From Amphibalanus amphitrite (lineage: Eukaryota > Arthropoda > Thecostraca > Balanomorpha > Balanidae): 64,000 bases of DNA. Each line of letters starts with the position of its first letter. The stretch's first letter is position 1. A program made the position numbers and the translations under genes. Location of the stretch: assembly GCF_019059575.1 (NCBI RefSeq), contig NW_024882199.1, positions 310,001 to 374,000 of the forward strand, read 5' to 3'. The notes below the pieces were generated by a model, which searched no databases, was not told the origin of the DNA, and worked only from the letters and a program-made list of their open reading frames with translations. Of the stretch, positions 17,845 to 64,000 are shown piece after piece.

Positions 17845-18834
17845 CCCTATTCCTGGCGGGGGGGGGGCCTCAGGAGCCCCCCCCCCTGAGGTTTTTTGGT
17901 CATTTCTCCCAAACGCGTTGAGCTAGGAAGCTCAATTTTTCTGACTTTTCCTAAAAGGCTTCTACGCAACATGTCTGAAAATTTTGAGTTGATCTGACCT
18001 CAGGTCAGGTCACCAGAGGCGGTTTGGTGACCCTACCTCAGAAAAGTTTGCAATCACGCCAGAGCTAGAGTTTTTGACCGATCAATTTCTTCTCTTCAGG
18101 CTTTAGTTAGGGTACCAGTATGTGCAATTTGTATATCTCGGAATTTTGATATCGGTGACCTAAGGTCAGGTCAGTTTCGCGACCTCCCCATTATAAGTCA
18201 ATGGGGGAAAAATCAACTCCCTGTTTTTACCACTAAAACGGGTCGGAATGGCCCCATATACCATACATGACTTCATATACGATCAACCTTCACTACCTTG
18301 AGGTCTGTTTTGCTGTTGGGCAGTTGTGAGGTCATGTGACGTCATCAAAGGTCACCAAAGGTTTTTGGCCAATAACTCCGTACAGGAACAAGATACAGAC
18401 GCGTGGATGGTCTCATTGTGTTCAGCTCGTCAAGACGCATCGAATGATATACATGATGACCTCGAGGTCACGTGACCTGAGGTCAACCTTTGACCTTGAC
18501 CTTTCGAGGTCAACATATATATCATTCGATGCGGATTGACGAGAGAATCACGATGATGCCCTTAGTTTGTTCCTATCTTGACTAATTCGAAAGTTATTCG
18601 AGAAAAACTCTCTCCATATCTAGCGCCGCCATTTTGACTTTTTCGACCCCTGTGACGTCATCTTTGACCTGACCTGAAAATGACCTTCGTATAAGTTGTA
18701 GATCTTGACCGTGCGTATCCGATGCCGTTTACCGTTTGTCGCTGCGATGTGTAGTTTTTGAGATCTGAAGGGGGGGCCGAATCGGCCCCCCCCCCGCCAG
18801 TTTGTTGTCCCGGCGGAGCCCGCCAGGAATAGGG
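17845..18834. mobile_element. GCE-1: TTAA-flanked GC-clamp element
   Basis: A 990-bp element sits between TTAA duplications (17841-17844 and 18835-18838). It begins CCCTATTCCTGGCGGG and ends with the reverse complement. Beside each end is a G-run/C-run hairpin. The interior contains TGACGTCA palindromes, many TGACCT/AGGTCA half sites, and an inverted pair of GCATCGAATGATATA motifs (about 18438 and 18525). No reading frame is credible. It is nested in the hAT-like element and resembles GCE-14 in opposite orientation. Confidence 0.9.
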
Positions 18835-19359
18835 TTAACTAGGAACGAGGCGGGTCACTTGGACGTATTCGGGAGCCAAATACGGTGTTTTGGAGCCAAT
18901 ACCTGGGAAACCCTACCCGCCCAATGCGAGTTTTTAAGAGTCTGCATGCCCAAATTAACGTTGAGCGCGGCCGTTTTCGGTCGGTTTTCCGCGACCTTGT
19001 GGCGAAATCGCCTTATTTATTCAACCAGGGTGGGCTAATTCGCTTAACTAGGAATGAGGCGTTGAAGAGAATTATTCGAGGAATAGAGCTGTGTAAAAAT
19101 ATTTCTTGTATTGTTAAAACTGTATCCGCCCTCGAACGATGAATATTGTTGATCCATCAGGAACACATCCCCTGGAATGCGTTTGGACTTGGCTGGAACT
19201 AATATTAGCGAGTATCTGCTAATGCAGTTTCTTGGCTTACACAGTACGCACACAAGCATGCATACTTCCTGCCCTTGGTTATCCCTCACTTGAATGAAAA
19301 TTTTGCTATAATAACTATTCCAAGCAGTTAACAGGTTTTAGTGCAGTGCCAAGTCGGAA

Positions 19360-19520
19360 CCGTTCAGCGCCGCCAGTCTCCCAGGCGGCGCGTAACGGCC
19401 GCCGCCGGCCGCCGCGCCGCCGCTCTGGCGGGGTGTTTGACTTCATATTTCTGTTGCTAGAAAAGTTGTGGACCGATTTACTTGATTCTTGCATGAAAAG
19501 ATCCGCCATTCAATTCTTAG
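19360..19520. repeat. GC-rich block shared with GCE-13
   Basis: GGCGGCGCGTAACGG, a run of CCGCCG, then TGTTTGACTT and CTAGAAAAGTTG are found here and at about 45630-45770 inside GCE-13. Here the block lies inside the hAT-like element without G-run ends, so it is probably a fragment of a related element. Confidence 0.7.
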
Positions 19521-20598
19521 CAGGTAACGAAAATTTGACGTCAATTGCACGATCCGCTGCCTATATTGTGGTACTGCCATCTATTGACAAGGCTGCCGAA
19601 CTAAGGCCGGGCGGCTATTTCCACTTTTGACACACCATGGTAGCTAATAAAGAGTTTCTCGTATTATCTGGTATGTAGCAGATACAGCATTTTTCCCAGC
19701 CCTGCCGATCAGCAGAGAGGCCGCTCCGGCCGAAGCCGGGCGGGACGGTGTCCCGCGCTGAGTCCCGAGGCGTTCCGTCTCTGGTGGTCGGCCTCCGGTG
19801 GTCGATCTCGGGTCTGACTGCCCCCTTCTCCTTCTCCGCTGAGTTTTTGTTCGCCTGTGATTTCCGGGCCGGAGGTTCCGGGCGTCGGCGGGCCTCCCTG
19901 ACCGGGGCAGAAAATTGGCGACATCCCGTCTCGCATCCGGAGTCGAGACCGTCGCCCTCCTCCTCCATTCCGCCGGAACGTGACGTCATCCTCACTAGCA
20001 CGGCTCATCCGTCTCAGCTGTCTCCTGCCGGATGACGTTTTCACACTCGATTTTCGCCGGATGTCGGTCCCTGCCTGTGCCGGACGGCTGACCGCAACGA
20101 CATCCTTCCACCTTCCTGTCAGCTGCGTCGGCAGGATGTGCGTGGCGCCAGGCGTCGGGAGGCTGGTCCAGCACCGGGAGCAGGTGTTTCCGGCTGCGTT
20201 GCGTTTGTCGGCGGCCACTGCGCCGGCCCGGATGGGTGTGTTTGTACTCCACCCTTCGGCGTGCCTTTGATCTTCGCTTAATGGTGACCGGCCGACGGGT
20301 CGGGGGATCGTATGGTCGACCCCCTCCCCACGCCGGCTCAGCGCCGCGGCAGGCAGTGCGATCGCCCTTACGTATAGAGTGTGTGAGATGTCCTTTTTGA
20401 CGTACGAAAAAAATGTCACAGGTTTCAGCTTTACACAACTACCGGCTGGACGAGCCGCCGAGCGGCCTGCCGACCGACCGCTCCCGTATGGCAGCGGGCC
20501 GCCGCCAGCTGCACCACCAGACACCGACAACAAGCACCGACACACTGTCACAGCACATCCAGCAGCCGGCTTGTCTCGCTGTCAACCACGTGACCTCG

Positions 20599-20694
20599 CC
20601 TGTCCATCAACGCACTCACAAAATCAACTAATCACCCTCGCCTGACCATCAACGCACTCACAAAATTAACTTATCACCCTCGCCTGTCCTTTAA
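20599..20694. repeat. 42-bp minisatellite, left part
   Basis: Units beginning CCTGWCCATCAACGCACTCA repeat every 42 bp. The array is interrupted by GCE-2 and continues at 21870. Confidence 0.9.
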
Positions 20695-21869
20695 CCCGCG
20701 CCCCACTGGGGGGGCTATTTATTGCCCCCCTCCCGTTTTTCTGCAATAACTTCCAAACCGCTTGACGTATCGATGTGACACCAAACTCTCAGTGCCTTCG
20801 GCTGCATCAATTTGACACCTTGTGTCAAAATTTAAACTTCGTACCTACCATAGGTCGGCCGGAAATGACGTCAGAGTGACGTCATGTTCGGCCGATTTCG
20901 ACGCAAAACATTGAACCACGGCAATCGCTCCCAAGAGCTCAGTTTTTTAAAGCTAGATCCAATTTCTTTGCATGACATGACTCAAAATAGACTGCGCTAT
21001 CAAACTGCTATCTCGGATTTTCGAAACTTTGAAAATTTTGAAAATTTTGTATAATAAAATTCAAAATTTATATTTTTTACATTTTTTTTTGACTTTTCGA
21101 AAAAAAACCGGAATACATGTGATAGAACGCATTATTATGACTAACTCTGGCAAGTTTAAGCTGAATATCTTCAAAAATAGCCAAGTTATACGCATTATTG
21201 CAAAAAATTAGCAATTATTAATTTTTCAAATCAAGTTTTCAGCACGAATTTGACATCGTACGCCAATATAAATAGCACCATCGTATTCCTGAGCTCAAAC
21301 TGCATCCAATAGACACCTTTTTTGTTGAAAATTTCAACTTCAAAATTTGACCTTTTTTGACCTGAAAGTGACCTGACCTAAGCTAAATTTGACTCAAAAT
21401 GACCTCGAATGACACAGATGATATCAAATTCGAAGTTTTTGGCCTAAATGGACCATAACACATGTGTCACGTGACCGACGCATGATATAATATTTTCGTG
21501 ACCTGTGATGACCTGACCTTGACCTGAAAATCAAAGTACAAGTTTAGTACCCTCAGAGTATCTAGAGCATCTGTTCACGAGTGTGTGAGCCAAAAATGAG
21601 CCTGATCTGACTTGTAAGACGGCGGCCAGAGCCCAAAACGTGAAGAAGCCAAAATGCTATTTTTACTTTGACCTGACCTGTGACGTCATCGGTGACCTCG
21701 AGGTCAATGAAATTAGGTTTCGTTAGACAGTTTTTCAGGGGCTATCAGACGCCGTTTGAATTTTGACGATCGGCCCAGCAGTTGCGGGGTTAGGAGGGGG
21801 GGGCTTTTAATAGCCCCCCCCCCTCCCCCCAGTAGGGCGTGTTATACGCAGACCCCAGTGTGGCGCGGG
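20695..21869. mobile_element. GCE-2: TTAA-flanked GC-clamp element
   Basis: A 1,175-bp element lies between TTAA at 20691-20694 and 21870-21873. It starts CCCGCGCCCCACTGGG and ends in CCCCAGTGTGGCGCGGG. A hairpin of GGGGG(G)CTATT...GCCCCCC follows the start and a matching one precedes the end. The interior holds CRE-like TGACGTCA sites and TGACCTGACCT arrays near 21340-21720. It interrupts a 42-bp minisatellite, which confirms the boundaries. Confidence 0.9.
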
Positions 21870-21950
21870 TTAAAACGCACTTACAAAATCAACTAATCAC
21901 CCTCGCCTGGCCATCAACGCACTCACAAAAATCAACCGGTCACCCCTCGT
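21870..21950. repeat. 42-bp minisatellite, right part
   Basis: This continues the array left of GCE-2, with CGCACTTACAAAATCAACTAA and CCATCAACGCACTCA units. Confidence 0.85.
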
Positions 21951-22039
21951 CAAATACACACAAAATAACACCGAGCTCACATCCATTTCCGTATTTATCG
22001 GAAAATCCCACCACAGCAGTCACCCCCGTTGCCGTCGTG

Positions 22040-23643: not shown

Positions 23644-25407
23644 CCCTCGCCAGGCGAGGGAGGGCCTTTTCCATAACACGGACGGCGAGGGGGGGTTGGT
23701 ACGACCCCCTCGCGATTGGCTCCTATGGCACGTAGAAACGCCAAGGCCAAATTTACAGGGTAGGTGGGTCCATAGGAGATCTCGCCCCTGTTAAAGTTTG
23801 GTGACTCTAAGTCAAAATTTAGGGGGGTTTTGGGGGTATGAGTGCAAAAATTTTGCTAAAACATATCAAAAGTTTTTCGCTTATAACTTTTTACCTAGTA
23901 TAGATTGAGCAAAAATAAAAGCACCAGTTAACTCAGGACGTTTGTGCGCATCGCATGACATACTTTGTTACCAATTTTAGTGAACTCTGGAATTCAGTTG
24001 CCGCTAAGCTAGTCCAATTTTCCCCTGACCTTGTACCGTTTTTTTTTTTACCTGGTGACCTGACCTGAAAAGACTGGGACTTCAAATTTTCAGGGAAGGT
24101 GCGAAAATGTTGCCCCAGAGGGTATGCCAAATTTGGCGTCGCTACGCACCGCCGTTTTTACGTTATTTGCGAAAACCTTAACCTTCCAGGCGGGGGGCAT
24201 TTTTTTGCCCCCCCCCCCTTTAGTTTTTTTCGATATATCTCGAGAACCACTGCGCCGATCGTCACCAAACTTACAGTACCCTCCCGGGAGCAGCTAGCGC
24301 ACATGGTGACCAAACATTTTTCCAAAGGCTATGATAGGTTGGCCGCTAATGACGTCAGAGTGACGTCATTTTTGCAATTTTCGACCCCAAAAAAGGTTTC
24401 GCGGGAAGAGCTGTCAGGCCTACAGCTTTAGAGATACAGAAAAATGTTTCAGACATAAAAAGTGTGGAAGTAAAAGGGCTACAAAACTGTCTTTTCGGTT
24501 TTTCGAATTTTTTTGGATTTTGACCCCAAAAAATAAAAAAAAGATTTTTTGAATATAACAGCCAAAAAATCCAAAAAGTTTTTTGAATTTCGAAACAAAC
24601 CGGAATATATGTGATAGCCCCTACCGCCTTCTATCTACATACCAAATTTGAGATCAATACCTCTTTTTTTGGCCAAGTTATAGCGCAAAAACTGTTCAAA
24701 ATTGATGACGTCAAATTTTCAAACTCAATTTTTAGCAATTCTAGACCTCGTAGCGCAAAACAAAGACCACCATTAGACTCCCCGTGACGAGCTGCATCGA
24801 ATCGATACCCATTTCATGCAAAATATCAACTTTAAAATTTGATTTTTTTGACCTGACCTTGACCTGACCTCCACCAGAAAGTGACCTAAACCGTACCTGA
24901 TGGTCTTATAAGCAACACCATTGAGTCGGAAATGAAAAGCTGGCCATAAAACACGCATCGCATAACCTTAGTAAAATTGGGCTCATGTGGTGACCCTTGG
25001 TGACCTTTGGTGACCTGACCTGTGACCTGACCTGGTATGACCAGTGACCTCTAATAGCAAAATATGTACTAGACAACTGACGCCTTATCGCTGATTTTCG
25101 ACAAAATGCGTTTTACTCGGTGTTATAGCGCTTTCCCTAGAAGCCCCGTGAACGGTGAAACATTTTATCTTTGACCTGACCTGTGACGTCATCGGTGACC
25201 CCGAGGTCAATGAAATTTGGTTTCCCTCAACAAATTTGACAGGGCTATCGAACGCCGTTCGAATTTTCCGGATCCGTCCAGTAGTTTCGGAGATACGGGG
25301 GGGCAAAAAAGTGCTCCCCCACCGCGTGGAAGGTGGCTGGTAGGCCCACCGCCTGCCGGGTTAAGGGGTTGCATCAACCCCTTAAGCCCTCCTTCGCCGG
25401 GCGAGGG
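23644..25407. mobile_element. GCE-3a: interrupted GC-clamp element
   Basis: The left end begins CCCTCGCCAGGCGAGGG with a GGGGGG/CCCCCTCGCG clamp. The right end is CGCCGGGCGAGGG followed by TTAA. The left flank reads CAAA, so a matching duplication is not preserved. About 540 bp of left part and 43 bp of right part remain around GCE-3b. The left part is closely similar to GCE-18 in the same orientation. Confidence 0.75.
24182..25360. mobile_element. GCE-3b: nested TTAA-flanked GC-clamp element
   Basis: A 1,179-bp element lies between TTAA at 24178-24181 and 25361-25364, inside GCE-3a. It starts CCTTCCAGGCGGGGGGC and ends CCGCCTGCCGGG. It has a G/C-run clamp at each end, TGACGTCA sites near 24350 and 25185, and TGACCT arrays at 24850-25040. 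It matches GCE-7 in reverse orientation and GCE-2 in the same orientation. Confidence 0.88.
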
Positions 25408-25474
25408 TTAAAGAAAATGAAATAAATTATTTCAATTACGTAGATGCTAAAGCTCTCAGCACACACGGTTTTAA

Positions 25475-26064
25475 CCCGGCGGCCGCTGGGCCTCCGCGCC
25501 ACCCGCCGGCCGCTGGGGGGGAGGGCATATAGTTGCCCCCCCTTTACTTCTGCGACGCTATCGTCGCAACTCGAAGAGATAGAGAAGCGAAACTTTGCAC
25601 ACACCTTCCTGAATACCTAGCCGAGGTTGTGTCCAAATTTGGTGTCGATCCCATTTGAAATGACGTCACAGTGACGTCATAAGTGAAATTATAGATTTGC
25701 GACTCTCATATTCCTCACGATACATCAGATATATGGAACCGAATATAAAGGGTCGATTATTGGTCAGAAACTAGATGGAAGTGTAGTTAGATGTTTTAGG
25801 ATGACAGCAGGTGCTATCTAGTTCATTTACAGTGGAGTTTCATGCTCAGCGTCATCAGAAACGGTCCATATCGGAAAACGACAACACTTTATGACGTCAC
25901 TGTGACGTCATCTTAGGTGCTACAACCACCAAACTTTCCTCAAACATTGCCTAGGTATTCATTTGAAGCTATGCCAAGTTTCACGTTCGTAGCTCATCAG
26001 GTTTCGGAGATATTTCACAAAACGTAAAGGGGGGCAACTTTATGCCCCCCCAGCGGCTCGTGGG
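25475..26064. mobile_element. GCE-4: short TTAA-flanked GC-clamp element
   Basis: At 590 bp this is the shortest complete member. It is flanked by TTAA at 25471-25474 and 26065-26068. It carries two close pairs of CRE palindromes in opposite arrangement, TGACGTCACAGTGACGTCA near 25662 and TGACGTCACTGTGACGTCA near 25892. The right TTAA is shared with GCE-5. Confidence 0.88.
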
Positions 26065-26068
26065 TTAA

Positions 26069-27249
26069 CCCGCGCGGGGCTGGGGGGGGTAAATTTTACC
26101 CCCCCCCCTCGCGAATTTTTGCGATATCTCAAAAACGGCGGCGCGCAGCGCCGCCAAACTTTCAGTACCTTTTCTTACATCAATTTGACACGTTCCCTGA
26201 AAATTTGAGCGAAATCCGTCGGAAATTTTTTGAGAAATTGACGTTTTAGTGACGTCATGTTCGCCATTTTCGCCTCAAAAACGGCAAAAGTTCAAACGCC
26301 GCTAACATCTTCATTTTTAAAGGAATTAAGACGTAACAAAAAAGGTTATACGTAATTTTACTTTGTCTATCAAATGGCTATCTCGGTTTTTTGAAAATTT
26401 TGGATTTTGGCCTAATTTTTTTCAAAAAACTGACTTTTTTGGGAAAATCATAATAAAATCCAAAATTTTGAGTCTATCGAAAAAACCGGAATATATGTCA
26501 GAGAAGTGGTCTATGTGCACCTACATACCAAGTTTTAGAAGAATCGGTTCAAAAATGTGGGAGTTATTCAAAATTTTATGACGTCACGACACACAAAATT
26601 TTTGAAAAATGACTTTTTTGGAAGTTCTAGACCTCGTACGGAACCAAAAATAGCACCATTCGATTCGCCGTGAAAAACTGCATCAGATAGACACCTTTTT
26701 AGGCCTTAACAACCAACTTCAAAATTTGACCTCACTTGACCTGACCTTGACCTGACGTCGACCTGAAATTCATCCAGAGGTGGTCCATATCACTTATTGA
26801 GTGTGCCTATTGAATTCTATGAGTAAAATGACCCATAAAACATGTGTCGCACATGCCCTTTTCTATATTTTGTTTTTTGGTGACCTGACCTGACCTGACC
26901 TGACTTTGACCTTGACCTCTGAATGATACTGTATGCAACGAATATTGTCTTGGTAGCCTAAGAACACGTTTTGGGCGATCAGTCTCAGTCCATGACTCCA
27001 TTCTTCGGCAACTACGGTGCAAGGCCGATACTGTAGAAACTTGCAATTTGTACCCTTGACCTGACCTTGACCTTGACCTCAAACTTTAAATTAAGTACAT
27101 GTTTTTAGTAGTTCGTGATGAGAGCTTTCGATTGGCGTTTGAATTTTCCAAATCGGACCATTAGTTCGGGAGATAACAGGGGGGGGGTAAAATTTACCCC
27201 CCCCCCCCCAGCCCCGCGCGTTCGGCTGGAGACCCCAGCCCCGCGCGGG
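26069..27249. mobile_element. GCE-5: TTAA-flanked GC-clamp element
   Basis: A 1,181-bp element lies between TTAA at 26065-26068 and 27250-27253. The ends are CCCGCGCGGGGCTGGG and the reverse complement. Clamps read GGTAAATTTTACC between G and C runs. The interior has CRE palindromes near 26250 and 26580 and long TGACCT arrays at 26730-26920 and 27055-27075. It matches GCE-8 in reverse orientation, and GCE-17 is a fragment of it. Confidence 0.9.
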
Positions 27250-27568
27250 TTAAAGGTAGTGTGCCAGCTTTCTTGGACCGTATGGAGTTAATGGCCCAGA
27301 TAAGGAGAACCGGATTTTTAGAACTTATCCATACCTTCAAAACTCATGGAAACGTCTTAAATTCTTCAAATTTTGAGTACCCCAGTGCGAAATTCGCCCC
27401 GACGGGTTGTCGGTCGTACCCCAACCACATTTCACACCACTATGAACAATAAATGCACACACTGAAATCGCTATTACCGATATGCTCATCCAATCAAGTT
27501 TCGATAAACCCGTTCATCATCAGCTCCTGCGGTTTCGAACACGCCTGTTAGGTGGTGCGGTAGACCAC

Positions 27569-27782
27569 GCCCAAAGCCAGGGCCCCGGTAACGTGAGGTA
27601 GCCGAGTCAGGGCAGCGTGCGCTGACCCAAGCCGGAGCCGCGCGTCCTCCCGGTGTCATGTGATAGCCCGGGGCTGCCCGCGGGGATGCGGTAGACCGCG
27701 CCCAAAGCTGCGGCCCCGGCTTGGGTCAGCGCACGCTGCCCCGACTCGGCTACCTCACGTTACCGGGGCCCTGGCTTTGGGC
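27569..27782. repeat. 67-bp inverted repeat (hairpin)
   Basis: Arms 27569-27635 and 27716-27782 are complementary over 67 bp with a single mismatch and an 80-bp loop. The arms contain GTAACGTGAGGTAGCCGAG and GCGTGCGCTGACCC. The loop repeats part of the outer flank (TGCGGTAGACC...CGCCCAAAGC). It is much more GC-rich than the surrounding element. Confidence 0.95.
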
Positions 27783-28026
27783 GCGGCTTCTGCTCATACT
27801 TTGTGGTGCGGTGGTGGTGCGTCGGGCTGCGCGCTCTGACTTCGGCCAAGAAAAATGCGTCAGCTGATCATTGTCATTTCTGCCACTTGCGTGTGGTGAA
27901 ATGGGGTCATAACTTATAAGACGGCTTTTTCATAACAATTATTTTACATAAAATCATATTTCAAACCATAAAAAATGTTCGACAGCCAAATAAAAGAAAC
28001 AATACCAATACGGGCTTACAGTTTAA

Positions 28027-28942
28027 CCCGCGAGTTGCTGGGGGGGGGCGTTAAACGCCCCCACTTTTTTCGCCGGGCCATAGCATAAAAACGGCGCGCC
28101 GCAGGCGCGCCAAATTTTGGGTACCTGTAGGGAATTGATTGAAGATTATTGCGACAAAGTTTCAAAAAAATCGGTCGGAAATTTTTTGAGATATCGAGGT
28201 TTTAGTGACGTCATGATTTCTGAGTTTTCGACCAAAAACGGCAGACGTTCAAAAAATCATATAAAATCACAGAATAGACATACAGACATGCCGTAAACGC
28301 CATTAGACTGCCAATAGTATGAACAATCAAATGGCTATCTTCGATTATTGATTATCGTTCCGAATTTTCCAAAATCTTGAACTGAATCTCGGCAATTTCT
28401 CGTGACTCCTTCACGACCATGATACATGTATTTCTTAAATTTAACTTTTTGAGCCAAACACGTACACATATGATAAAATGAATGTCATCATCGTGTTCTA
28501 CGCTCCAAATTACCCATAAAACATGTGTCACAGGCTGCGAATATCAGTTTTGATTTTCGGGGATATGTGCCTACCCGGTTGACCTGACCTTGACCCTGAC
28601 CTATGCATGACTGACCCCTGCATGGAGCTGACACTCTTGTAGGCCTTATATGATGGATTGTGCACCGTTTTGACAGAGTTTATGACGAGAGCCGCCCATT
28701 GCGAAGTCCTGAAGTCCATGCTACTGAAAGCCCGATTTCAGGTGTTTGACCTGACCTTGACCCGACCTGTGACCTCAAAATTCAACTTTAAAGTATTCAT
28801 TTGATGCGTCTCGTCGCGTTCTTTCGTTTGCCGCCTCGTGCGTTTCGCTGCGCCTATTGGTTCTCGAGTTATCGGCTGGGGGCGTTTAACGCCCCCCCCC
28901 CCAGCAAACGGTGGGTGGCGAAATACCCCAGCAACTGCCGGG
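28027..28942. mobile_element. GCE-6: TTAA-flanked GC-clamp element
   Basis: A 916-bp element lies between TTAA at 28023-28026 and 28943-28946, nested in the 27254-29254 element. It starts CCCGCGAGTTGCTGGG and ends CCCCAGCAACTGCCGGG. The clamp is built around GCGTTTAACGC. TGACGTCA is at about 28207 and TGACCT clusters at 28578-28605 and 28745-28775. Confidence 0.88.
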
Positions 28943-29254
28943 TTAAGGCTCGACATTGTGTTGTCTACGATTAGACAGCTGATAACTCATTCCCGTACGT
29001 CGTATGGTCGTAACACTATAATGACCTTTGCTTATTGTCACAAGTGCGCCGCATTCGCGATTGTTGCCCGACGCCTGTTTGCAGGTGAGCCCACTACAGT
29101 TGTTATACATATCTAAAAACCGATTAACTTTTAGGCGAAAAAGGCACTATTCCAGGCCCATTTTTGATTTTTTTTTGCGAAATTTGGTAAAAACAGAAGC
29201 TTCTTATCCTAGGAAAAATAAAATGGGAAATCTTTCAAAGGTGGCACACTACCT

Positions 29255-30220: not shown

Positions 30221-33200
30221 CTGTGAACAGAAAACATAACACGGAAAACACTCAGTTACAGCCAACTACGGACATGTCAGGCTTAGTTACAGCTAACTAC
30301 GGAGATGTCAGGCTCAGTTACAGCTAACTACGGAGATGTTAGGTTCAGTTATACTATATCTAACTACGGAGATGTCAGGTTCAGTTACAGCTAACTATGG
30401 AGATGTCAGGCTCAGTTACAGCTAACCCGCGCCCTGGTGGGGTCTGTTTATAACGCGACCTGGTGTGGGGGGGGGGGCTATTTTTGCCTCCCCCTCGTAC
30501 CTCCAAAACTACTGGACGGATCCACAAAATTCAAACGGCGCTCGAAAGGCCTGTCAAATTTGTCGAAGGAAACCAAATTACACTGACCTCGGCGTCACCG
30601 ATGACGTCACAGGTCAGGTCAAAGATCAAATGTTTCACCGTTCACGGGTCTTCTAGGGAATGCGCTATAACACCGAGGAAAACGCATTTTGTAGAGAATC
30701 AGCGAAAGGGCGTCAGTTGCCTAGTACATATGTTGCTATTAGAGGTCTTTGACAATACCAGGTCAGGTCACAGGTCAGGTCACATGAACCCAACTTTAGG
30801 TACTAAGGTTGTGCGATGCATGTTTTATGGCCAATTTTTCATTTCCAACTCAATGGTGTTGGTTATAAGACTATCAGGTACGGCTTAGCTCACTTTCTGG
30901 TGAACGTCAGGTCAAGGTCAGGTAAAAAACGTCAAATTTTAAAGTTTATAGTTTTTCATAAAATGGGTATTGACTCGATGCAGCTCGTCACGGGGAGTCT
31001 AATGGTGGTCTTTGTTTTGCACTACGGGGTCTATGTAGAATTGCTAAAAATTGAATTTGAAAATTTGACGTCATCAATTTCGAACAGTTTTTTCGCTATA
31101 ACTTCGCCAAAAAAGAAAGGTATCAATCTCACATTTGGTATGTGGATAGAAGGCGGTAAGGACTATCAGATATATTCCGGTTTTTGCTAAATCCAAAAAA
31201 CTTTTTTGGATTTTTCGGCAAATATATTCGAAAAATCTATTTTTTTTTTGGTCAAAATCTAAAAATTTCAAAAATCCGAGATAGCAGTTTTGTAGCCCTG
31301 TATATTCTACAGCTTTTATGTCTTCATTATTTTTCTGTATTTGCAAAGCTATAGGCCTGACAGCTCTTCCCCCGAAACCCTTTTTGGATCGAAAACGGCA
31401 GAACATGACGTCACTCTGACGTCATTTCCGGCCAACCTATCATAGCCTTTGTAACATTTTTTTGGTCACAATGTGTAAAATTGATGTCTTGGAGAGTACT
31501 GAAAGTTTGGTGACGATCGACGCAGCGGTTTTGGAGATATATTGAAAAGTCTGGAGGGGGGCAAAAATAGCCCCCCCCCACCAGGGCGCGGGCTAACTAC
31601 GGAGATGTCAGGCTAAGTTACAGCTAACTACGGAGATGTCAGGCTCAGGTACAGCTCGCATGTAAGATGTATTTACCATAACATCATCATGTTTGAAATC
31701 TAATACACCCTAAATGGTATGGTTTTGGACAAGTATTTTGGGATGGACATGACTTTGATATTCTGTGCGTTTTTTTTTTTAGTTTGAACACCCGATATAT
31801 TTTCCTAAATAAGTGGACTGGACTGACAACTACAATAGACCTCCTATGGAAAAAAGTAAAGACGACGTCCAAGAAAAAAAAATCATCGAGCTTGAATAAG
31901 ATTAGACATAAGTCCTAAAGGATTGTCAGATCTGGATGGTGGTAGCACCGTTCAACGTGTGGTTTCTTGAGAAAGGTGATGGTGTACAGTCTGTCTTAAA
32001 AGTATCGCGCAAAGTGACGGTGGATCCATCGAGCCCGACTGAGCAAGGCCTGCTAAATTTGGGTCACCGAAGCAATTGGCATCCTTGTCCATTCCCTAGG
32101 TCAATTGGTCGGTGACTTTTGAATTAAAACAGGCCCTTTCTCGGTCAGGCTTGATGGATCCACCGTCACTTTGCGCGGTACTTTTAAGACAGACTGTACA
32201 GCCCTCTGCAAACTGCGTGGTAGTTATTATGTTTTCGACAAAACCGATAATATCCCGCGCCCCGCTGGGCTATTCAGCCATACGCGCCCTGCTGGGGGGG
32301 GGACAGCTTCTGCCCCCCCCCTGTCCAACTTCCGAGCCGATGGTCGTAGAAAGACGGGGAAAACGGCAATCGAAAGCTCTCAACAAGGCGGATCGTAAGA
32401 GTCCATTTTTTGCTAAAGTAGGTCAGAGGTCAGGTCAAGGTCAGGTCAAGGGTACAAAATGCAAATTTCTACAGTATCGGCCTTGCACCGTAGTTGCCAA
32501 AGAATGGACTGAGACTGATTGCCCAAAACGTGTTCTTAGGCTACCAAGACAATATTTGTTGCATACAATATCATGCAAAGGTCAAGGTCAAGGTCAGGTC
32601 AGGTCACCAAAAACGAAATATAGAAAAAGGCATGTGCGACACATGTTTTATGGGTCATTTTATTCATAGAATTCAATAGGCACAGTCAATAAGTGATATG
32701 GACCACAACTGGATGAATTTCAGGACGAGGTCAGGTCAAGTCAGGGAAAGTGAGGTCAAATTTGAAGTTGGTTGTTAAGGCCCAAAAAGGTGTCTATATG
32801 TGTCGTGACGTCATTAAATTTTGAATAACTCCACATTTTTGAAACGATTCTTCTAAAAATTGGTATGTAGGTGCACATAGACCACTTCTCTGACATATAC
32901 CTATTCCGTTTTTTCGATACATTCAAAATTTGGGATTTTATAATTATTTTCCAAAAAAGTCATTTTTTAATTTGGCCAAAATCCAAAATTTTCGAAAAAC
33001 CAACACAGCCATTTGACAAAGTAAAATCACGTACCTACAACCTTTTTCTTACGTCTTGATTCCTTTAAAAATGAAGATGTTAGCGGCGTTTGAAATTTTG
33101 CCGTTTTTGAGGCGAAAATTGCGAACATGACGTCACTAAAACGTCATTTTCTCAAAAAAATTCCGACGGATGTCGCTCAAATTTTCAGGGAACGTGTCAA

Positions 33201-36200
33201 TAAGGTACTGAAAGTTTGACCTCGCTGGCGTAACGCGTTTAGAAGTTATTGGCGAAAAACGGGAGGGGCAGATTCTGCCCCTCCCCCCCCCCCAGCGGGG
33301 CGCGGGATATCTCAAAGGCTATGTTATAAGTCGCTCAGAACTCATTGCACGTAGATGCACCATGCTTCACTCCTTAGATTAGGTGCATCACTGAACAACG
33401 TGTACGACTAGTTTGGCAGCAATATTCAAAAGTTTGTTTTCGGGACAAATATGAACTTTTGTATGTTGTTGTCAAACTGGATGGAAAATGCATACCATTA
33501 TAAGCCCAATCTAAGGTGCGGAGTCTCGCACGTCTTGCTGCTACGATTTCCGAGTGACTGATAGCATAATATTCAAGTTATTCTCGGTTTTGTCGAAAAA
33601 AGAATACCTACCACGCAGTGTACCTATGTCCCGGGTCATCCGCGTGCCACGTGCAGACGAACATATGGAGTACACAAGTATCTTATGGACGCTGAAAGTC
33701 AAACACAGGGTGGCGCAGATGCCAGATTCGCTGGTCACACGTCGCAGAGCTCGACCACTGGCATATGGTATGCTGGGCACCGCAGGGTGCCTTATGCTTG
33801 TGCTAATGGCAAACACATGATATGAGGAGGCATCCTCCGATTCCGAAGAACATTGAGATAGGCAACCAAAGACGACAGGACGACACAACTGGACGACCGC
33901 TCTAAGGCGCTATGCGAGTGGGCGTGATGGGGTGATGGTGCTCGTGCTGTGCACGTGCAAGTCTCTTTAACCCTATTACTGGTGGGCTCTCTGGACTACG
34001 CACAGAAAAATATTAACACCGTTAGCGGTGTAATTGCACAGTACATATCTGAGCACTTGAGGAAAGTTACTTTAGTCCCTTCCCCGCTTAAATTACTCGC
34101 GCTTCTAAATGAACACCAGGAAGAAGGTAATAGAACACTGTTAGGAGGGTTGGGTGTTTTGCTACATGTAGTAAAACACCCAACCCTCCTAACAGTGTTC
34201 TATTACCTTCTTCCTGGTGTTCATTTAGAAGCGCGAGTAATTTAAGCGGGGAAGGGACTAAATTAAATTTCCTCAAGTGCTCAGATATGTACTGTGCAAT
34301 TACACCGCTAACGGTGTCAATATTTTTCTGTGTGTACGTTAACTGGTGGAGGGGGCCGATTCGTCCCCCTTGATATCTCGAAAACTAAATGTCCGATCTC
34401 AATAAGACAAACGTCATTCGATTGCTCTCATCGTGAACTTTCAGAATGACTTTAAAAAGTCAAAAAAGTTCAAAATTGGGTGTCCTGGAAGCAAAAAAAA
34501 ATTGAAAAAATCGCGTTTTACACCTCAGCACTAAAAATGCTATAACTTCTTTCTTTTTTGACCGATTTTCATGACACTCCAGAAAACCCTTCTTCATGAA
34601 CTAGGCCTTCAAATATATATTCCGGTATTTTGGATATTTCAAAAATCATAGGCGGATTCAGGTAAGCTAACTTGGGATCATGTTTTGAGTTTTTGTCATC
34701 GCATATCATGTGTCTTATGACATGCGGCGTCATATATCATGTAAATTATGCAACGTGAGCACAAAATACACGTTTTCGTTAAGCATACGCGGATTCACGC
34801 ACGCTAAGACGGGGGGCAGTACATTGATATTACCCCCTTTTCTCAGATACCTGGATCCGCCTATTCCAATATTTTCATTGTAAAATGACGTCACATAGTC
34901 TTAAGGCGCATACATATGACGGGCGGTGCCACTGGTCACCAGTATAAACCTAAGCAAGTCGCTGCTTAGCCGCAAATGTCGAAATAGTCAAATCTTGGCC
35001 AAAACTACCCCCGAGAAACTCGTTCTGGAGACGCCTCGGCGCAAGCTAGAAACTCAAAAATTTGACACAATGTGCCCATTAAATAGCAAGGAAAAGTCAC
35101 CAAATTCCAAGCCCCTAGCTCGAGTCGTTTTCCGTTGAGAGGAAAAAACTACAGGTATGGGCCGATTCCCCCCCCCCCACCAGTAACAGGGTTAAAGTGC
35201 ACGTCGTGCCAACCATACAGTCGGAAAACGTCACTCAGGCTAACCCCAAGAACCAAACTGGAACGGTGCACGCATAATGAATAAAACATATGAACATATG
35301 TTTCATATGCGTGTGCGTTAGGGTGTTTCACATTTTCAAAGTGCCATATTGCGAGTCATATCGATGTTCCCCTCAAATGTCATCTGCTCACAAGTTTCTG
35401 TGTAAAATTTCACTTCATTCTGATGATGTTTAGAGGTCGCACATTTCTGCGACTTTTCATCTCTGATTTTGTTTCGGGCCGTAACATGAGTAGTCTTCCT
35501 GCGAACTGATTTGGTTGAGAAAGCCAGGCAGTGGCGGCGGAATAGGGGGTGCAGGGGGTGCAGCTGCACCCCCATCGAAAAACATGGGGGTGCAAACATA
35601 TCTTTTTTGCACCCCCAAAATCCATACAAGGGGCCCGTCGCACCATCCAATACATTTTCTCCTGAAAACCAGTGATCGGGAAACGAACACTGATGTGAAA
35701 TCATCCGGGGTGTCTATTTATGGTCAGGAGCGCCCCATGCTAGTCGGGACCTCCACACCGGCTAGAAGTGTCCCGAGCCGCGTTTGGTGCTCCACACGGC
35801 ATCTGATGGCCCCACGACGGCCTCAGAGGGCCCTTTTATGACGATCTCTGAGGGCTCCCACCTGAGGGCTTTGTCCCCTGGGGCCCTACAACGGCCACTA
35901 AGGGCCCTCGTGACGACCGCTGAGGGTCCCACAGACTCCAGGGGCCACGCGGGCCTCTGAGGGCCCCTATGACGGCCTCTGAGGGCCCTTACGATGATCT
36001 CTGTGGGCTCTCACGACGAACTCTGTCCCCTGGGGCCCTATAACGACCACTAAGGGCCCTCATGACGACCGCTGAGGGTCCCACAGGACTCCAGGGGCCC
36101 CACTGGCCCCTGAGGGTCTCTACGACGGTCTCTGAGGGCCCTCGTGACGGCCCTAGACCCAACTCAAGTCTGAGGGCCCATTTGGCTTCAGGCGGCCCAG

Positions 36201-48658: not shown

Positions 48659-48991
48659 TTAACCCGCGCACCGACGGGGGTCTGCGCCAACTTCGCACCG
48701 ACGGGGGGGGCGGATGACCGCCCCCCCCCCTGAGATCTCGAGAACGAAGCAAGATAGCGACAAGCGGTAAACGGCATCGGATACGCACGGCCAAGATCTA
48801 CAATTTTTACTCAGGTCATTTTCAGGTCAGGTCAAAGATGACGTCACAGGGGTCGAAAAAGTCAAAATGGCGGCGCTAGATATGGAGAGAGTATTTCTCG
48901 AATAACTTTCGAATTAGTCAAGATAGGAACAAACTAAGGGCATCATCGTGATCCTCTCGTCTATCCGCATCGAATGATATATATATGTTGC

Positions 48992-49180
48992 GGGCCAAGT
49001 GCGAAGGCTAGTCCATTCGCGAATGGCCTAGTCCAAGTGCGATAACGCACTTGGACTAGGCCGTTTGCGAATGGACTAGTCCATGTGCGTTATTGCAGTT
49101 GGCCTAGGCCGTTTGCGAATGGACGGGCGTTTATGCTCCCAGTCCAAGTGCGAAGTCAGGCCAAGTGCGAAACATCCAGC
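48992..49180. repeat. Palindromic array of CCAAGTGCG units
   Basis: AGTCCAAGTGCG and its complement CGCACTTGGACT alternate with GGCCTAGTCC and CGAATGGAC. One exact palindrome is AAGTGCGATAACGCACTT. Units are about 24-45 bp in alternating orientation. Confidence 0.85.
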
Positions 49181-49283
49181 AAAATGACGTCAACTTGGCA
49201 AGTCAACTTGGCATGTGCAAAGTCTCGTGTGAAATGATGCGTGCAAAGTATTGGTAACTCAACCGGAAAATAACTTTTCTGAT

Positions 49284-51892
<2,609 letters not shown>

Positions 51893-52004
51893 GTATACTT
51901 CGGCAGAATGTCTTCATTTTTGCATGTGATGTTGAAAGCCAGAGCGTATTTGCATTTGATATATATATTTTTGATATATATATTTTTTTGCAACATCACA
52001 TGCA

Positions 52005-52053
<49 letters not shown>

Positions 52054-52814
52054 ACCTCGAAAGGTCAAGGTCAAAGGTTTACCTCAGGTCACGTGACCTC
52101 GAGGTCATCATGTATATCATTCGATGCGTCTTGACGAGCTGAGCACAATGAGACCATCCACACGTCTGTATCTTGTTCCTGTACGGAGTTATTGGCCAAA
52201 AACCTTTGGTGACCTTTGATGACGTCACATGACCTCACAGCTGCCCAACAGCAAAACAGACCTCAAGGTAGTGAAGGTTGATCGTATATGAAGTCATGTA
52301 TGGTATATGGGGCCATTCCGACCTGTTTTAGTGGTAAAAACAGGGAGTTGATTTTTCCCCCATTGACTTATAATGGGGAGGTCGCGAAATTGACCTGACC
52401 TTAGGTCACCGATATCAAAATTCCGAGATATACAAATTGTAGCTACTAATGACCTAATAATATCCTGCGACTTTCAAGGGCCTCCGACATCTACTGTAGC
52501 TCTGGCACGGTGACAAAGTTGCAAAAAAGTGACTTGAGGTTGGGTCATTCAAAGTGACCTGGTGACCTGACCTTAAAAGGTAGGAAGTTCAAACTTGCAC
52601 ACCATGTGTAAAATTGATGAGGTTATAGTCATACTAAATTTCGCGGCGCTACGCGCCGCGGTTTTCCTGCTCTTCGCGAAAAACCTTAGGGGGGGGCGGA
52701 TATCCGCCCCCCCCGTCGGTGCGAGGGTTAAAACCGGGAATCACCAAACCATTTGAGTCCCAATGGAAAACAACAGAATAATCGGTTCGGTGATACTCAA
52801 ATCAAACAGCCTTC

Positions 52815-53141: not shown

Positions 53142-53420
53142 AGTGGCTGGCTGGCAGGTATTTGGATGCAAGTACATAAAAAACGCAACACTCATAGCAG
53201 CCTCACTGTTGTGGTCGATGACGTCAGGAGCAGAATGTAGTTGAAATACATATGGTAAAAGCTAATCAGATCAATGTCATCATCAGACCAGAAATGTGGT
53301 GTTTGTTTTACGCGAGCTGACGCGCTGTGTAGGGGCGCTTCAGCGGAACCAAATCAGCTGCCTTCGTCGACCCTAAAATAAATTTTGGGAGGTAGCGCAC
53401 CTTAACAGCTCGGAGTTTAA

Positions 53421-53466
53421 CCCACGCCCTGATGGGGGGGGGGGGGCATTTTGGCCCCCCTGTGGT
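53421..53466. mobile_element. GCE-15: left-end fragment
   Basis: TTAA at 53417-53420 is followed by CCCACGCCCTGATGGGG, a G run, and CATTTTGGCCCCCC. The right part is missing; Ty3-type gag sequence starts directly after. Confidence 0.65.
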
Positions 53467-56585: not shown

Positions 56586-57137
56586 TCACTCGATGTGATC
56601 GCCGTCGGCGTCCCGCACCCTCTCGAGACGGCGCCGGAAAGCGGAGCACGCGCGCCGGGCCTCGTCCTTGTCAATGGTGCTGACTGCCTTCCTGATGGCC
56701 TTCTTCAGGTCAGAAACGTTGGCAGGAGTGGTCGAGTTGGACTTTTGTTCTACCACGCCCCACATCCAAAAGTCGCATGGATTCAAGTCAGGCGAGTTGG
56801 AGGGCCATATGTCCTTGAGTACATATAGGGGGATCCTCTGGCTCAGGAAATCTTGCACCCTCTGGGAAGCATGTGCTGGGGCGGAGTCTTGCACCAGCAT
56901 GACTTTGCTCAAGTCATAGTATTTCATCATCCAGGGGATGAGAGACTCCTTCAGGATGGTCAAATACGCGTCAGTGTCGATCATCACACCAGCAGGCATG
57001 AAATGGGGCGGCATTATGCGGCCATCACTTGCGACGGCCCCGAACACCATTACTGATGCCGGATTTTTTCCTTTCATCACGGGAGCCACTTCATCAGGGC
57101 TGTAGGCGATAGCCCGCGAGTTCCTGTTGCGAATCAC
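56586..57137 (-). pseudogene. Tc1/mariner-type transposase, C-terminal half
   Basis: The frame has VMVFGAVASDGR, then VQDSAPAHASQ with the second catalytic Asp and SPDLNPCDFWMWG with the third. Counting residues between QD and CD gives 37, a DD37D-like spacing as in maT-type elements. The N-terminal DNA-binding half and first catalytic Asp are not found upstream (57138-57300), so it is truncated. The terminal repeats were not identified. It starts shortly after the second Ty3 fragment ends. Confidence 0.88.
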
Positions 57138-57350
57138 GCAGCAGATGTGCTATATGGGTGTCTGTCACGTGACACAGCTCGCCCTGTTTAAAATGGTCTT
57201 GCAGAGCATGTCGGGCTAAAAAAGAGAGAATACAGATGGACTTGAGTCACAGAAACGTTCTTTCGTTAACTTATGATTAATCGATTTTAACTTTAATTCT
57301 GAACAAAGTAAAACAGACAGAATCCTAATATTGAAGAATGACAATATAAT

Positions 57351-57367: not shown

Positions 57368-57375
57368 CAATCGAC

Positions 57376-59449: not shown

Positions 59450-59583
59450 TGTTGCAGGCACTTTAGAAAAGCAGTCATTTTGTAAAATGCCTAGGCATTT
59501 TGCAAAATGCCTGATTTTCCAGGCTTTTTGCAAAAAGCCTAGGCATTTTACAAAATGACTGACTCTCCAGTCATTTTGCAACA
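59450..59583. repeat. 134-bp hairpin element at the BEL truncation point
   Basis: Ends are TGTTGCA and TGCAACA. The interior is built of CATTTTGYAAAATGCCTAGG-type palindromes. It may be a MITE or the scar that ended the retrotransposon. Confidence 0.8.
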
Positions 59584-61131: not shown

Positions 61132-61135
61132 TTAA

Positions 61136-61425
61136 CCCGCGCGGGGCTGGGGTTTCCACTCTCCAGCCGAACGCGCGGGGCTGGGGGGATAAATTTTACC
61201 CCCCTGTTATCTCCCGAACTATTGGTCCGATTTGGAAAATTCAAACGCCAATCGAAAGATCTCATCACGAATAACTAAAAACATGCACTTAATTTAAAGT
61301 TTGAGGTCAAGGTCAAGGTCAGGTCAAGGGTACAAATTGCAAGTTTCTACAGTATCAGCCTTGCACCGTAGTTGCCGAAGAATGGAGTCATGGACTGAGA
61401 CTGATTGCCCAAAACGTGCTTGGGC
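61136..61425. mobile_element. GCE-17: truncated copy of the GCE-5 subfamily
   Basis: TTAA at 61132-61135 is followed by CCCGCGCGGGGCTGGGG and a GGATAAATTTTACC clamp. About 290 bp match the right end of GCE-5 in reverse order, up to CCCAAAACGTGCTT. The other end is missing. Confidence 0.82.
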
Positions 61426-61599: not shown

Positions 61600-62640
61600 C
61601 CTCGGAGGGCCGGTATGGGATTAAAGCTCAGCTACACTAAGGGCTTGTGTGGTGCCTTCAGTTATCGGTGGCACCCTCAGAATCACCGGCGTAGGGCCCT
61701 CAGAGCCGCCGGTAAGGGAGGCACCGGTGTGGGGCCGCCATGCAGGTGCCGGTGTGGGCGATCAGAGGTGCTAGTGTGATTCTCTCAGAGGCGCCGATGA
61801 GGGTCCTTACAGGCGTTGCTCCGGGCCCTCATAGACGCTGGTGTAGAGCCGTTACAGACGGGTGTGGGGCCTTTAGAGCTGCTGACGCGAACTCTCTACA
61901 AGCCGGCAGGGGGTCTCAGTGACCGGCAAGGGGTCCTTATTAGGCCGGCAGAAGAAGTCCTGCGGGGTCCTAAGAGACCGGCATGGTACTGTCAGACGCC
62001 GGTGGGGCCCTCAGGGTCACCGTTGTGGGGCCCTCAAGTCATCAGTGGGTGGCCTTTAGATGCGCAGGTGTTGGGTGGGTCCTCAGAGCCGCCGATATAG
62101 GGCTTTAATAGGCACTGGTGTAGGCACTCGGAGTTGGGGGTGTGAAACCCTCAGAGACACCGGTGTGGGCCCTCAAAGGCACCGACGAGGGCCCCATAGT
62201 TGCCGTTATGGGGCCCTCAGAAAAATAAGTGTGGGACCATCACAGGTGGGAAATGCCCCTAGAACTTTTCCTCATTGGCCGGTAAGACCTCTCAGAGGCC
62301 AGTAAAGGCTGAAGCAGACTCTTTCCGCGTTCAGGAAATCGCATGCGAGAGCCTATTCAAAAACATTGTAATTCCTCTCGCATCAATCGCTCGCGGGAGG
62401 TGCGTGCGATTGATGCGAGCGTGCTTCCATGTATTTGAATAGGCTCTCGCATGCGATTTCCTGACTGCGGAAAGAGTCTGTTTCAGGCTTAACGGGCCTT
62501 TGGAGACCACCGAGGTGTCCTTAAAAGCCGCAAGAGGCCCTCAGAAGTCGGCGTGGGGCCCTTATGGAGACCTTAGTGTGGCTATTTAGGGCCCATGAGG
62601 TGCTCTAAAGAGCCCCACGGGGCCCTTCTGAGTAGAAATA
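61600..62640. repeat. GGGCCC-containing degenerate minisatellite, opposite orientation
   Basis: GGGCCCTCAGAG and CCGGTGTGGGG words repeat about every 25-40 bp. The complement (CTCTGAGGGCCC) matches the units at 35790-36300. A hairpin interrupts the array at 62315-62480. Confidence 0.82.
62315..62480. repeat. 166-bp hairpin
   Basis: Outer arms CAGACTCTTTCCGCGTTCAG and complement, with GGAAATCGCATGCGAGAGCC, enclose a second inner pair (CTCGCATCAATCGC). A few mismatches are seen. It sits inside the GGGCCC array. Confidence 0.92.
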
Positions 62641-63040
62641 TGGCCATCGTTAACCCTCAGCGGTCAAATGGCGCCACAGGGCCTCTCGGACCCAAGGGTC
62701 CCTTTGAACCCGATGGGGGGAGGGGAAACGTGTCCCCTTACACCCCTAGCTATTCCACTGTTTTATATGCATCATGTCAGGTATTTTAGGCTCGCCCCCC
62801 CCCCCCAACATGAAAATCGTTCCCGGGCCCCTGATAATATCAGATGTAATGTTAACACAAATATCATGCATCTTAATTTGTGGTGATTTATTCAATGTAT
62901 ATTCTCTTAGTCACTGAATTGAGTAAGCATAGTATGTATTTGCATGATTCACTGGGCTCATTACAGTACTAGGAGATGGACATTCTGATTATTGAGGGCC
63001 TTGAGTCAGCTGGGAATGTTTTGAGGAGGCTGGGGGTGCT
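62641..63040. other. Intervening sequence, no gene seen
   Basis: Nothing recognisable beyond a C run near 62800. Confidence 0.4.
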
Positions 63041-63044
63041 TTAA

Positions 63045-64000
63045 CCCTCGCCCTGGCAGGGCATTTTTCATAACACGGCTTGGCAGGGGGGGGGGGGTCG
63101 ATGCGACCCCCCCCCTCGCGATTGGCTCCTATGGCACCTAGAAACACCAAATTTGGTAGGTAGGTGGGCCCCCTGGAGTTCTCGCCCCTGTGCAAATTTG
63201 GTTGCTCTAGGTCAATATTTAGGGGGGTTTTGGGGGGTATAAATGCAAAAATTTCGCTAAAAACAGGTCAAAAGTTTTTCGCTTATAACTTTTGATCTAA
63301 TTAAGATAGAGCAAAAAGAAAAGCACCAGTGAACTCAGCGCGTCAAGGCGCGTCGAATGATATACTTTTTAGCTTGCTTAAGTGTACTTAAAGTTTTTTC
63401 TTAAATTTTAAGTAAACTTAAATGAATAAATTAAGTTAAAGTTAACCAAATTGCATCATATCGCATATCATTCGATTCGGCTGATCACCAGGAACACAAT
63501 GATACCATTTTTTAAGCTCTAGCGTCATTATGTGCCAAGTTATTGGCAAAAACGTCATTTGACCTCAGTTGACCTCATTTGACCTGACCCATGGATAAGT
63601 ACACCAAACAAAGAAGCACCAAGTGACCTGCTGTTAAGTACTGTGGTTTCAAAGCACAAAAGTGATAGAACGAAGCGGATATCTCCAGTATTTTCCGAAT
63701 TTAGTATTTTCCCATAGGCTTAACATTACGACGTAATGACCTCTAACTGACCTCAGGTCAGTGACCTCAAAAAACCCGAACTATATGTTATACAACTCGG
63801 TGAACTTAGCACATCCTGAAAGTTTGAAGGAAATCAGTGCAAAACTGTGAGTTGGACAGGTGCAAAAAGAAAATTGAAATTTGACCATGACCTTGTACCG
63901 GTTTTTCTGACCTGGTGACCTGACCCAAGGTCACCCGGACCTGAAATTTTCAGGTCATATGTAAAAAGGTTGCCCCATAGGCTGTGCCAAATTTGGCGGC
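63045..64000. mobile_element. GCE-18: GC-clamp element running off the window
   Basis: TTAA at 63041-63044 is followed by CCCTCGCCCTGGCAGGG and a G-run/C-run clamp (GGTCGATGCGACC). The sequence then matches GCE-3a closely (CTCGCGATTGGCTCCTATGG, TTTTTCGCTTATAACTTTT, TGACCTTGTACCG). An ACTTAA-rich stretch at 63370-63445 separates the CGAATGATATA motif from its inverted partner. The right end lies outside the window. Confidence 0.85.

What the first reader, a model, noticed from the sequence alone, without database searches (positions are those of the whole stretch)
17845..64000. A large, diverse family of TTAA-flanked elements with G-run/C-run clamps at both ends
At least eighteen copies or fragments share one plan. 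They begin CCC and end GGG, are flanked by TTAA in most cases, carry an inverted G-run...C-run hairpin near each end, and are non-coding and mostly 0.6-1.2 kb. Terminal sequences differ between copies (for example CCCGCGCCCC, CCCTATTACTGG, CACGCGCAGTGG), yet within a copy left and right ends match. That implies many subfamilies under one mobilisation system. TTAA duplication plus CCC...GGG ends is known for piggyBac, so trans-mobilisation by a piggyBac-like transposase is my inference.
Basis: partly seen in the sequence, partly recalled or inferred. Interest (0 to 1): 0.8.

Follow-up and report, generated by a model that had tools for sequence, protein, structure and literature searches.

The report
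piggyBac elements with G-run palindromic ends
This eukaryotic genome carries many thousands of non-coding jumping genes that most likely ride on a piggyBac-type enzyme, and whose ends use runs of G and C where the classical piggyBac has its enzyme-binding palindrome.

Summary
The window lies in an 807.5-Mb genome and has 11 complete copies plus 4 single ends, with 4-bp duplications (9 TTAA, 1 CTAA, 1 ATAT of 11). Joined flanks of one copy match 40 uninterrupted loci at 98%. All 14 scored elements (10 of 11 in the window) have unequal ends: the G-run/C-run palindrome starts 10-14 nt in at the short end, 39-41 nt at the long end. Genome-wide spacing is bimodal: 14,917 short, 607 between, 16,528 long; reversed controls 0, 4, 0. 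The same ends bound three transposase-bearing copies (two families). Their transposases match Trichoplusia ni piggyBac (1.3e-56, 9e-79), with its cysteine-rich domain. A related copy on the window's contig shares about 700 bp with window elements. The layout repeats piggyBac's LE35/RE63 asymmetry, so the G/C palindrome is probably the cysteine-rich-domain site (inferred). Apparently new: poly-G palindromes with covarying cores, a T-run on short ends only (19 of 20), and one pair of subfamilies with 98%-identical interiors but different tips at both ends. No activity was tested.

The parts
17841..18838 (+). complete non-coding element, tips CCCTATTCCTGGC, TTAA both sides (strand + = short end at the lower coordinate, here and below)
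   Evidence: joined flanks match 40 uninterrupted loci at 98%; TTAA+tip 2141 forward / 2151 reverse genome-wide, control 0/0
20691..21873 (+). complete element, tips CCCGCGCCCCACT / CCCGCGCCACACT; sits in a minisatellite
24178..25364 (+). complete element with poorly matching tips (7 of 10); 75% over 740 nt to the 5' part of the C702 transposase-bearing element
25471..26068 (-). complete 598-bp element; shares the TTAA at 26065-26068 with the next element
26065..27253 (+). complete element, tips CCCGCGCGGGGCT, core TAAATTTTA at both ends
28023..28946 (+). complete element, core CGTTAAACG at both ends
30422..31596 (-). complete element with CTAA duplication inside a tandem repeat whose neighbouring units show the unfilled site
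32250..33310 (-). complete element with ATAT duplication, tips CCCGCGCCCCGCT (one search used a start one base off, so its printed flank and spacing there are one off)
33967..35195 (-). complete but decayed element without scorable palindromes; a 340-bp inverted repeat lies inside
45018..45883 (-). complete element with tips CACGCGCAGTGGAA (not CCC)
48659..52731 (-). element with tips CCCTCGCACCGAC / CCCGCGCACCGAC, interrupted by about 3 kb of other DNA; interior 97.8% over 406 nt and 90.8% over 282 nt to 17841-18838, tips different
37270..37344 (-). single long end (ATAA-CCCTCGCCCGCACAT)
53417..53460 (+). single short end (TTAA-CCCACGCCCTGAT), similar to the C33 short end
61132..61418 (-). 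long-end fragment of the CCCGCGCGGGGCT family (92% to 26965-27253)
63041..64000 (-). long end of an element, other end not seen in the window (TTAA-CCCTCGCCCTGGCA)
17858..17886 (+). example of the short-end G-run/core/C-run palindrome

Best explanation
These are non-autonomous, mostly 0.6-1.2 kb, high-copy piggyBac elements (long MITEs). Shown: 4-bp target duplication with empty sites; asymmetric ends in which a G-run/C-run palindrome begins 10-14 nt (13 in most) from the tip at the short end and 39-41 nt at the long end; the same layout on elements of this genome that encode a piggyBac transposase. Inferred: such transposases cut and paste the non-coding copies in trans; the 13-nt tip is read by the catalytic part; [quoted passage not shown] the two spacings build the unequal synapse that piggyBac needs; tip and core are the address of a transposase lineage; non-coding copies arose from coding ones by internal deletion and by change of ends.
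For: Ends against 40 shuffles: 17 against 0. Empty sites: 40 scored loci (of 457 candidates) at 98% over 158-160 of 160 joined-flank bases, and the CTAA copy in a tandem repeat. Palindrome start differs between the ends by 27 in 10 of 14 scored elements, by 26-30 in all 14. Genome-wide bins: tip 12-14 nt 14,917; 17-35 nt 607; 38-42 nt 16,528. Transposase-bearing copies with both ends: L069, L071, C33; short end only: L080, C702. Short end upstream of the gene in L069, L071, C33 and C702 (4 of 4). PF13843 1e-59 and 3.4e-68; PDB 6x67 piggyBac 1.3e-56 and 9e-79, alignment running through the CRD. Tree of 19 rows: the 5 rows with G-palindrome ends or the same CRD type are one side of a 100/100 branch. 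0 of 18 loci with both ordinary CCC ends resolved have a G5/C5 palindrome at those ends. C702 transposase-bearing element aligned with four window elements over 712-740 nt, 64-75%. LE35/RE63 and CRD palindrome at bp 17-33: passages of PMC7351741.
Against: No transposition or binding assay. CRD binding to the G/C palindrome rests on position and symmetry; a hairpin role would also keep the palindrome. Coding copies were found for two tip families with both ends and a third with the short end, against about 25 tip types. 75 of 116 transposase places were not examined. In L080 the long end was not found where expected and in C702 it was not reached. In the tree the ends of 8 of the 14 ordinary-side rows were not both resolved, the two labelled groups are each not a clade on their own (2 changes each), and the root is a midpoint. 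Unassigned G/C palindromes lie near ordinary-side loci L017, L020, L070 and L072. Tips of L069 and L071 match each other across the element at only 10 and 9 of 14.
Confidence: 0.9

Rival explanations
1. The G-run/C-run palindrome acts as a nucleic-acid hairpin (DNA cruciform, or an RNA stem with a T-run as terminator) that shields the element from outside transcription, rather than as a transposase site.
For: T4 or more within 22 nt inside the palindrome at 19 of 20 short ends and 0 of 20 long ends; 13% of window 22-mers have one. Outer core pairs complementary in 60 of 75, shuffled mean 26.0, 0 of 5000 as high.
Against: The palindrome is also on the long end, which lacks the T-run, and it sits where piggyBac's CRD site sits, in coding and non-coding copies alike.
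Confidence: 0.2
2. The elements are mobilised by another TTAA-specific superfamily (Kolobok or Sola3 type; recalled), with piggyBac resemblance by convergence.
For: TTAA duplication alone does not single out piggyBac (recalled). Other TTAA-flanked inverted repeats exist in the window, 48158-48662 and 27250-29258.
Against: Transposase-bearing elements with these ends encode piggyBac DDE proteins. Kolobok and Sola3 were not searched for.
Confidence: 0.03
3. The elements are dead relics and the G-runs expanded by slippage after insertion, without function.
For: G-run length varies widely between copies. Whether any coding copy is intact and active is unknown.
Against: Fixed spacing in thousands of copies; present on coding copies; copies 95-98% identical in two families (a third pair, L064 and the copy at 30422, is 90%).
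Confidence: 0.05

Closest known systems
piggyBac of Trichoplusia ni (PDB 6x67/6x68; PMC7351741, passages read)
   Same: TTAA target, unequal ends (35 and 63 bp), a palindrome at bp 17-33 held by a CRD dimer, RE 34-63 nearly repeating LE 7-35, DDE transposase with C-terminal CRD.
   Different: Here the palindrome is G-run, subfamily-specific core, C-run; the CRD has a longer basic stretch after the first Cys pair; about 25 tip types; a T-run on the short end.
piggyBat of Myotis lucifugus (PDB 9c0f; PMC11707139, passages read)
   Same: piggyBac superfamily; imperfect palindrome bound by a CRD dimer.
   Different: P0001 and P0003 are nearer piggyBac than piggyBat; piggyBat has three palindromes on its left end and none on its right.
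Coral CMITEs (PMC2872659, passages read)
   Same: Non-coding TTAA elements with CCC tips; one piggyBac-like transposon shares tips with CMITE family I.
   Different: 96-108 bp long; no G-run palindrome in the passages read.
Ordinary piggyBac elements of the same genome (tips such as CCCATTAGTGCC, CCCTTTACCGGGC, CCCAGATCTGCCC)
   Same: TTAA, CCC tips, PF13843 transposase.
   Different: No G5/C5 palindrome at the ends in 18 of 18 resolved loci, which are copies of about six families; other side of a 100/100 branch; the one tested, P0004, is nearer piggyBat.

Membership tests
piggyBac superfamily | TTAA target site duplication | tested here: met
   9 of 11 complete window copies TTAA, one CTAA, one ATAT; empty sites
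piggyBac superfamily | terminal CC[C/T] and inverted tips | tested here: met
   10 of 11 window copies begin CCC or CCT; 45018 begins CAC; tips match poorly in 24178 (7 of 10) and 25471 (9 of 13)
piggyBac superfamily | piggyBac DDE transposase between the same ends | tested here: met
   L069, L071, C33; aligned Asp residues conserved (that these three are the catalytic ones is recalled)
piggyBac superfamily | unequal ends with an internal palindrome | tested here: met
   compared with PMC7351741
piggyBac superfamily | C-terminal cysteine-rich domain | tested here: met
   P0001 and P0003 align to the piggyBac CRD; in L069 the frame is lost before it
piggyBac superfamily | seamless excision and transposition | not testable with these tools
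   needs an assay
MITE (miniature inverted-repeat element) | short, non-coding, high copy, homogeneous, both ends kept | tested here: met
   598-1229 bp for 10 of 11 window copies; thousands of ends; copies 95-98% identical in two families; longer than many MITEs
Kolobok or Sola3 | their own transposase between these ends | not tested
   no search with those families was made

The most novel reading that the evidence does not exclude
A modular end-exchange system: the transposase address (tip, palindrome core and spacer, at both ends) is replaced as a matched pair on an otherwise unchanged interior, so that a non-coding passenger changes driver; the shared G-run/C-run may be the place where ends are joined, and the short-end T-run tells left from right. 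For: L006 (tips CCCTATTCCTGGC) and L050 (tips CCCGCGCACCGAC) agree in 619 of 632 interior bases but 6 of 13 at both tips; L062 and L067 agree at 93% in the middle and 8 and 7 of 13 at the tips; conversely L001 and the copy at 17841 share tips and ends but not the middle. Against: four different-tip pairs were compared; in the other two the short and long tips of L064/24178 do not change alike (3 and 9 of 13) and the tips of 26065/32250 (10 of 13) are no less alike than the interior (76-85%). At the short side of L006/L050 the break lies about 280 nt inside, not at the G-run.
Probability: 0.3. Interest if true: 0.7.

Novelty: new variant of a known kind. Interest (0 to 1): 0.52.

Why it matters
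About 25 natural piggyBac end types in one genome, each with its own palindrome core, would let one read how a cysteine-rich domain and its DNA site change together. It is also a natural test of why piggyBac ends are unequal: the two spacings are kept in all scored elements while the tips change.

Tried and rejected
Hemocyanin (PF03722) as a clue to the host group: no match, and none in the 14 control genomes either, so nothing follows; the host group is not established. The end pattern in viral contigs: 0. Literature: tip strings and 'piggyBac G-rich/poly-G' gave 10 papers, 9 listed, with titles unrelated to transposons (not read). Searches (9 papers; 107, 15 listed; 43, 10 listed; 37, 12 listed) list piggyBac and MITE papers; no listed title or start of abstract mentions poly-G palindromes. 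Only passages of three papers were read. Repbase was not available.

Best-scoring piggyBac genes (L009-L035) as partners: rejected where both ends were resolved, since those ends lack the palindrome (18 loci). L028 looked like a coding copy, but its transposase has its own TTAA-CCCATTAGTGCCC ends and lies inside a G-palindrome element. L036 and L073 have the same CRD type, but their two ends were not both seen. L001 aligned with its family at 67-69% because the middle is unrelated. Reverse-strand counts of gapped patterns are inflated by overlapping matches and were not used.
Full report
What is there. Frames in it match gypsy-type reverse transcriptase, RNase H, integrase and protease domains at 37683-41183, retroelement protease pieces at 54060-54602 and 57842-59485, and, just below its curated cut-off, DDE_3 at 56586-57149. 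I take it as eukaryotic; the species is unknown. Between 17.8 kb and the right end lie 11 complete elements bounded by 4-bp duplications and 4 single ends. The end motif occurs 17 times; 40 dinucleotide shuffles give 0.

Unequal ends. I scored 15 elements (11 of the window, L028, L069, L071, C33); 14 gave two palindromes, and the copy at 33967 did not. The G-run starts 13 nt after the TTAA at most short ends (10 in the copy at 24178; 14 in 45018, L069 and L071) and 39-41 nt at the long ends; the difference is 27 in ten and 26-30 in all fourteen (one of the four others, 32250, is one off through my start coordinate). In most copies the long end carries part of the terminal motif again just before its G-run. 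Over the genome, with a non-G base required before the run, tips of 12-14 nt give 14,917 forward matches, 17-35 nt give 607 and 38-42 nt give 16,528; forward/reverse controls are 0/0, 4/2 and 0/0. The middle bin is the widest. Doubling for the other strand suggests roughly 30,000 elements (inference).

Target sites. Joined flanks of 17841-18838 with one TTAA match 40 scored loci, of 457 first-look candidates, at 98% over 158-160 of 160 bases without interruption. The copy at 30422-31596 duplicates CTAA inside a tandem repeat whose neighbouring units show the site unfilled. The copy at 32250-33310 is flanked by ATAT.

The partner. PF13843 has 116 matches in the genome and none in 14 control genomes. 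I read 41 of these loci (30, 10, L080), some only in part. Eighteen of the first 30 show both of their own TTAA-CCC ends, and none of these ends has a G5/C5 palindrome; they are copies of about six families. Three loci carry a transposase frame between a short and a long G-palindrome end: L069 and L071, which are one family, and C33:447032-451754. L080 shows the short end only. A transposase frame about 270 kb away on the window's own contig has its short end at C702:39481; its long end was not reached. In L069, L071, C33 and C702 the short end lies upstream of the gene. The L069 frame is lost before the cysteine-rich domain and the L071 frame starts late, so I do not claim an active copy.

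The proteins. The C33 and L071 frames match T. ni piggyBac at 1.3e-56 and 9e-79, through its cysteine-rich domain, and piggyBat more weakly. An ordinary piggyBac of the same genome (P0004) matches piggyBat best, 1.5e-27 against 5.5e-10 for piggyBac. Tree: 41 frames, near-copies collapsed to 20, L071 added, two frames under 500 aa dropped, 19 rows. Five rows (L069, L071, L077 with G-palindrome ends; L036 and L073 with the same CRD type, L073 with the short end seen) lie on one side of a 100/100 branch, 14 on the other. Each of the two labels alone is not a clade, the root is a midpoint, and ends on the other side are resolved for 6 of 14 rows. G/C palindromes of unknown ownership lie near L017, L020, L070 and L072.

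Descent. About 700 nt upstream of the C702 gene align with window copies 24178-25364 (75%, 740 nt), 30422-31596 (74%, 712), 26065-27253 (65%, 728) and 20691-21873 (64%, 732), the last two through to the tip; C33 shares shorter stretches with 17841-18838, 48659-52731 and 53417. Internal deletion of coding copies is the plain reading (inferred).

How it works. In T. ni piggyBac the minimal ends are 35 and 63 bp; the first 16 bp are held by the main domains; a palindrome at bp 17-33, centred near bp 25, is held by a dimer of C-terminal cysteine-rich domains on one end; RE 34-63 nearly repeats LE 7-35; with the native enzyme only unequal ends both excise and integrate in cells (PMC7351741, passages). 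Here the palindrome centre falls mostly at nt 25-28 of the short end (21-31 over all, from the lengths) and recurs about 27 nt further in at the long end. I therefore take the G/C palindrome as this lineage's CRD site. Position and symmetry are shown; binding is not.

The palindrome is kept while its letters change. Among 25 distinct cores of 26 tip types, 60 of 75 outer core pairs are complementary; pairing with other cores' right halves gives 26.0 on average, 44 at most, in 5000 shuffles. The cores were copied by hand, one per tip, and related subfamilies are not independent. This supports a symmetric site but does not tell a dimer site from a hairpin.

Two unexpected features. First, T4 or more follows the palindrome within 22 nt at 19 of 20 short ends and 0 of 20 long ends, against 13% of window 22-mers (one element per short tip; the decayed copy at 33967 gave none and the C702 piece was left out; some tips are close relatives). 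It may be a bending tract or a transcription stop; both are guesses. Second, interiors and tips do not always travel together. L006 and L050 agree in 619 of 632 interior bases but in 6 of 13 at both tips, and within each copy the two tips match. L062 and L067: 93% in the middle, 8 and 7 of 13 at the tips. L064 and 24178: 89%, 3 and 9 of 13. 26065 and 32250: 76%, 10 and 10 of 13, so here the tips are not faster. Three same-tip pairs have 13 of 13 at both tips. L001 has the tips of 17841 but an unrelated middle.

Verdict. The elements are long MITEs of the piggyBac superfamily, most likely served by a clade of piggyBac transposases whose ends use poly-G/poly-C palindromes. The superfamily is known. 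The palindrome type, the number of address types in one genome and the end/interior mosaic appear to be new, as far as the listings show; Repbase and most subscription papers could not be consulted.

Noticed in passing
window elements between 17841 and 64000, and L073: AGGTCA/TGACCT is dense in the elements (128 in 13.1 kb, 9.8 per kb, against 1.3 per kb outside), as is TGACGTCA (1.9 against 0.35 per kb), like nuclear-receptor half-sites and CRE sites (names recalled); two of the first ten elements have no AGGTCA/TGACCT. The DNA around the L073 transposase frame has such arrays too.
   Followed up: partly
short ends, e.g. window 17887-17900: A T-run directly inside the palindrome at short ends only (19 of 20 against 0 of 20 long ends).
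   Followed up: partly
48158-48662: A different TTAA-flanked inverted repeat (AGGGACTATCCCAC) abutting the element at 48659; similar tips in L015.
   Followed up: no
27250-29258: TTAA-flanked inverted ends AGGTAGTGTGCCA about 2 kb apart, around element 28023-28946.
   Followed up: no
33997-34336: A near-perfect 340-bp inverted repeat without spacer (97% complementary) inside the decayed element.
   Followed up: no
49282-51897: About 2.6 kb bounded by inverted (TA)n tracts and an AGGGTGGCACT motif, inside element 48659-52731.
   Followed up: no
5446-8368 and 13201-16087: Direct repeat of 2.9 kb, 98.6% identical; also 8358-9090 and 19705-20435 at 99.6%.
   Followed up: no
37441-41772: Gypsy-like frame of 1166 codons with 146-bp flanking repeats at 98.6%.
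   Followed up: no
L028:667-3347: An ordinary piggyBac (TTAA-CCCATTAGTGCCC) inside a G-palindrome element (L028:7-3825).
   Followed up: partly
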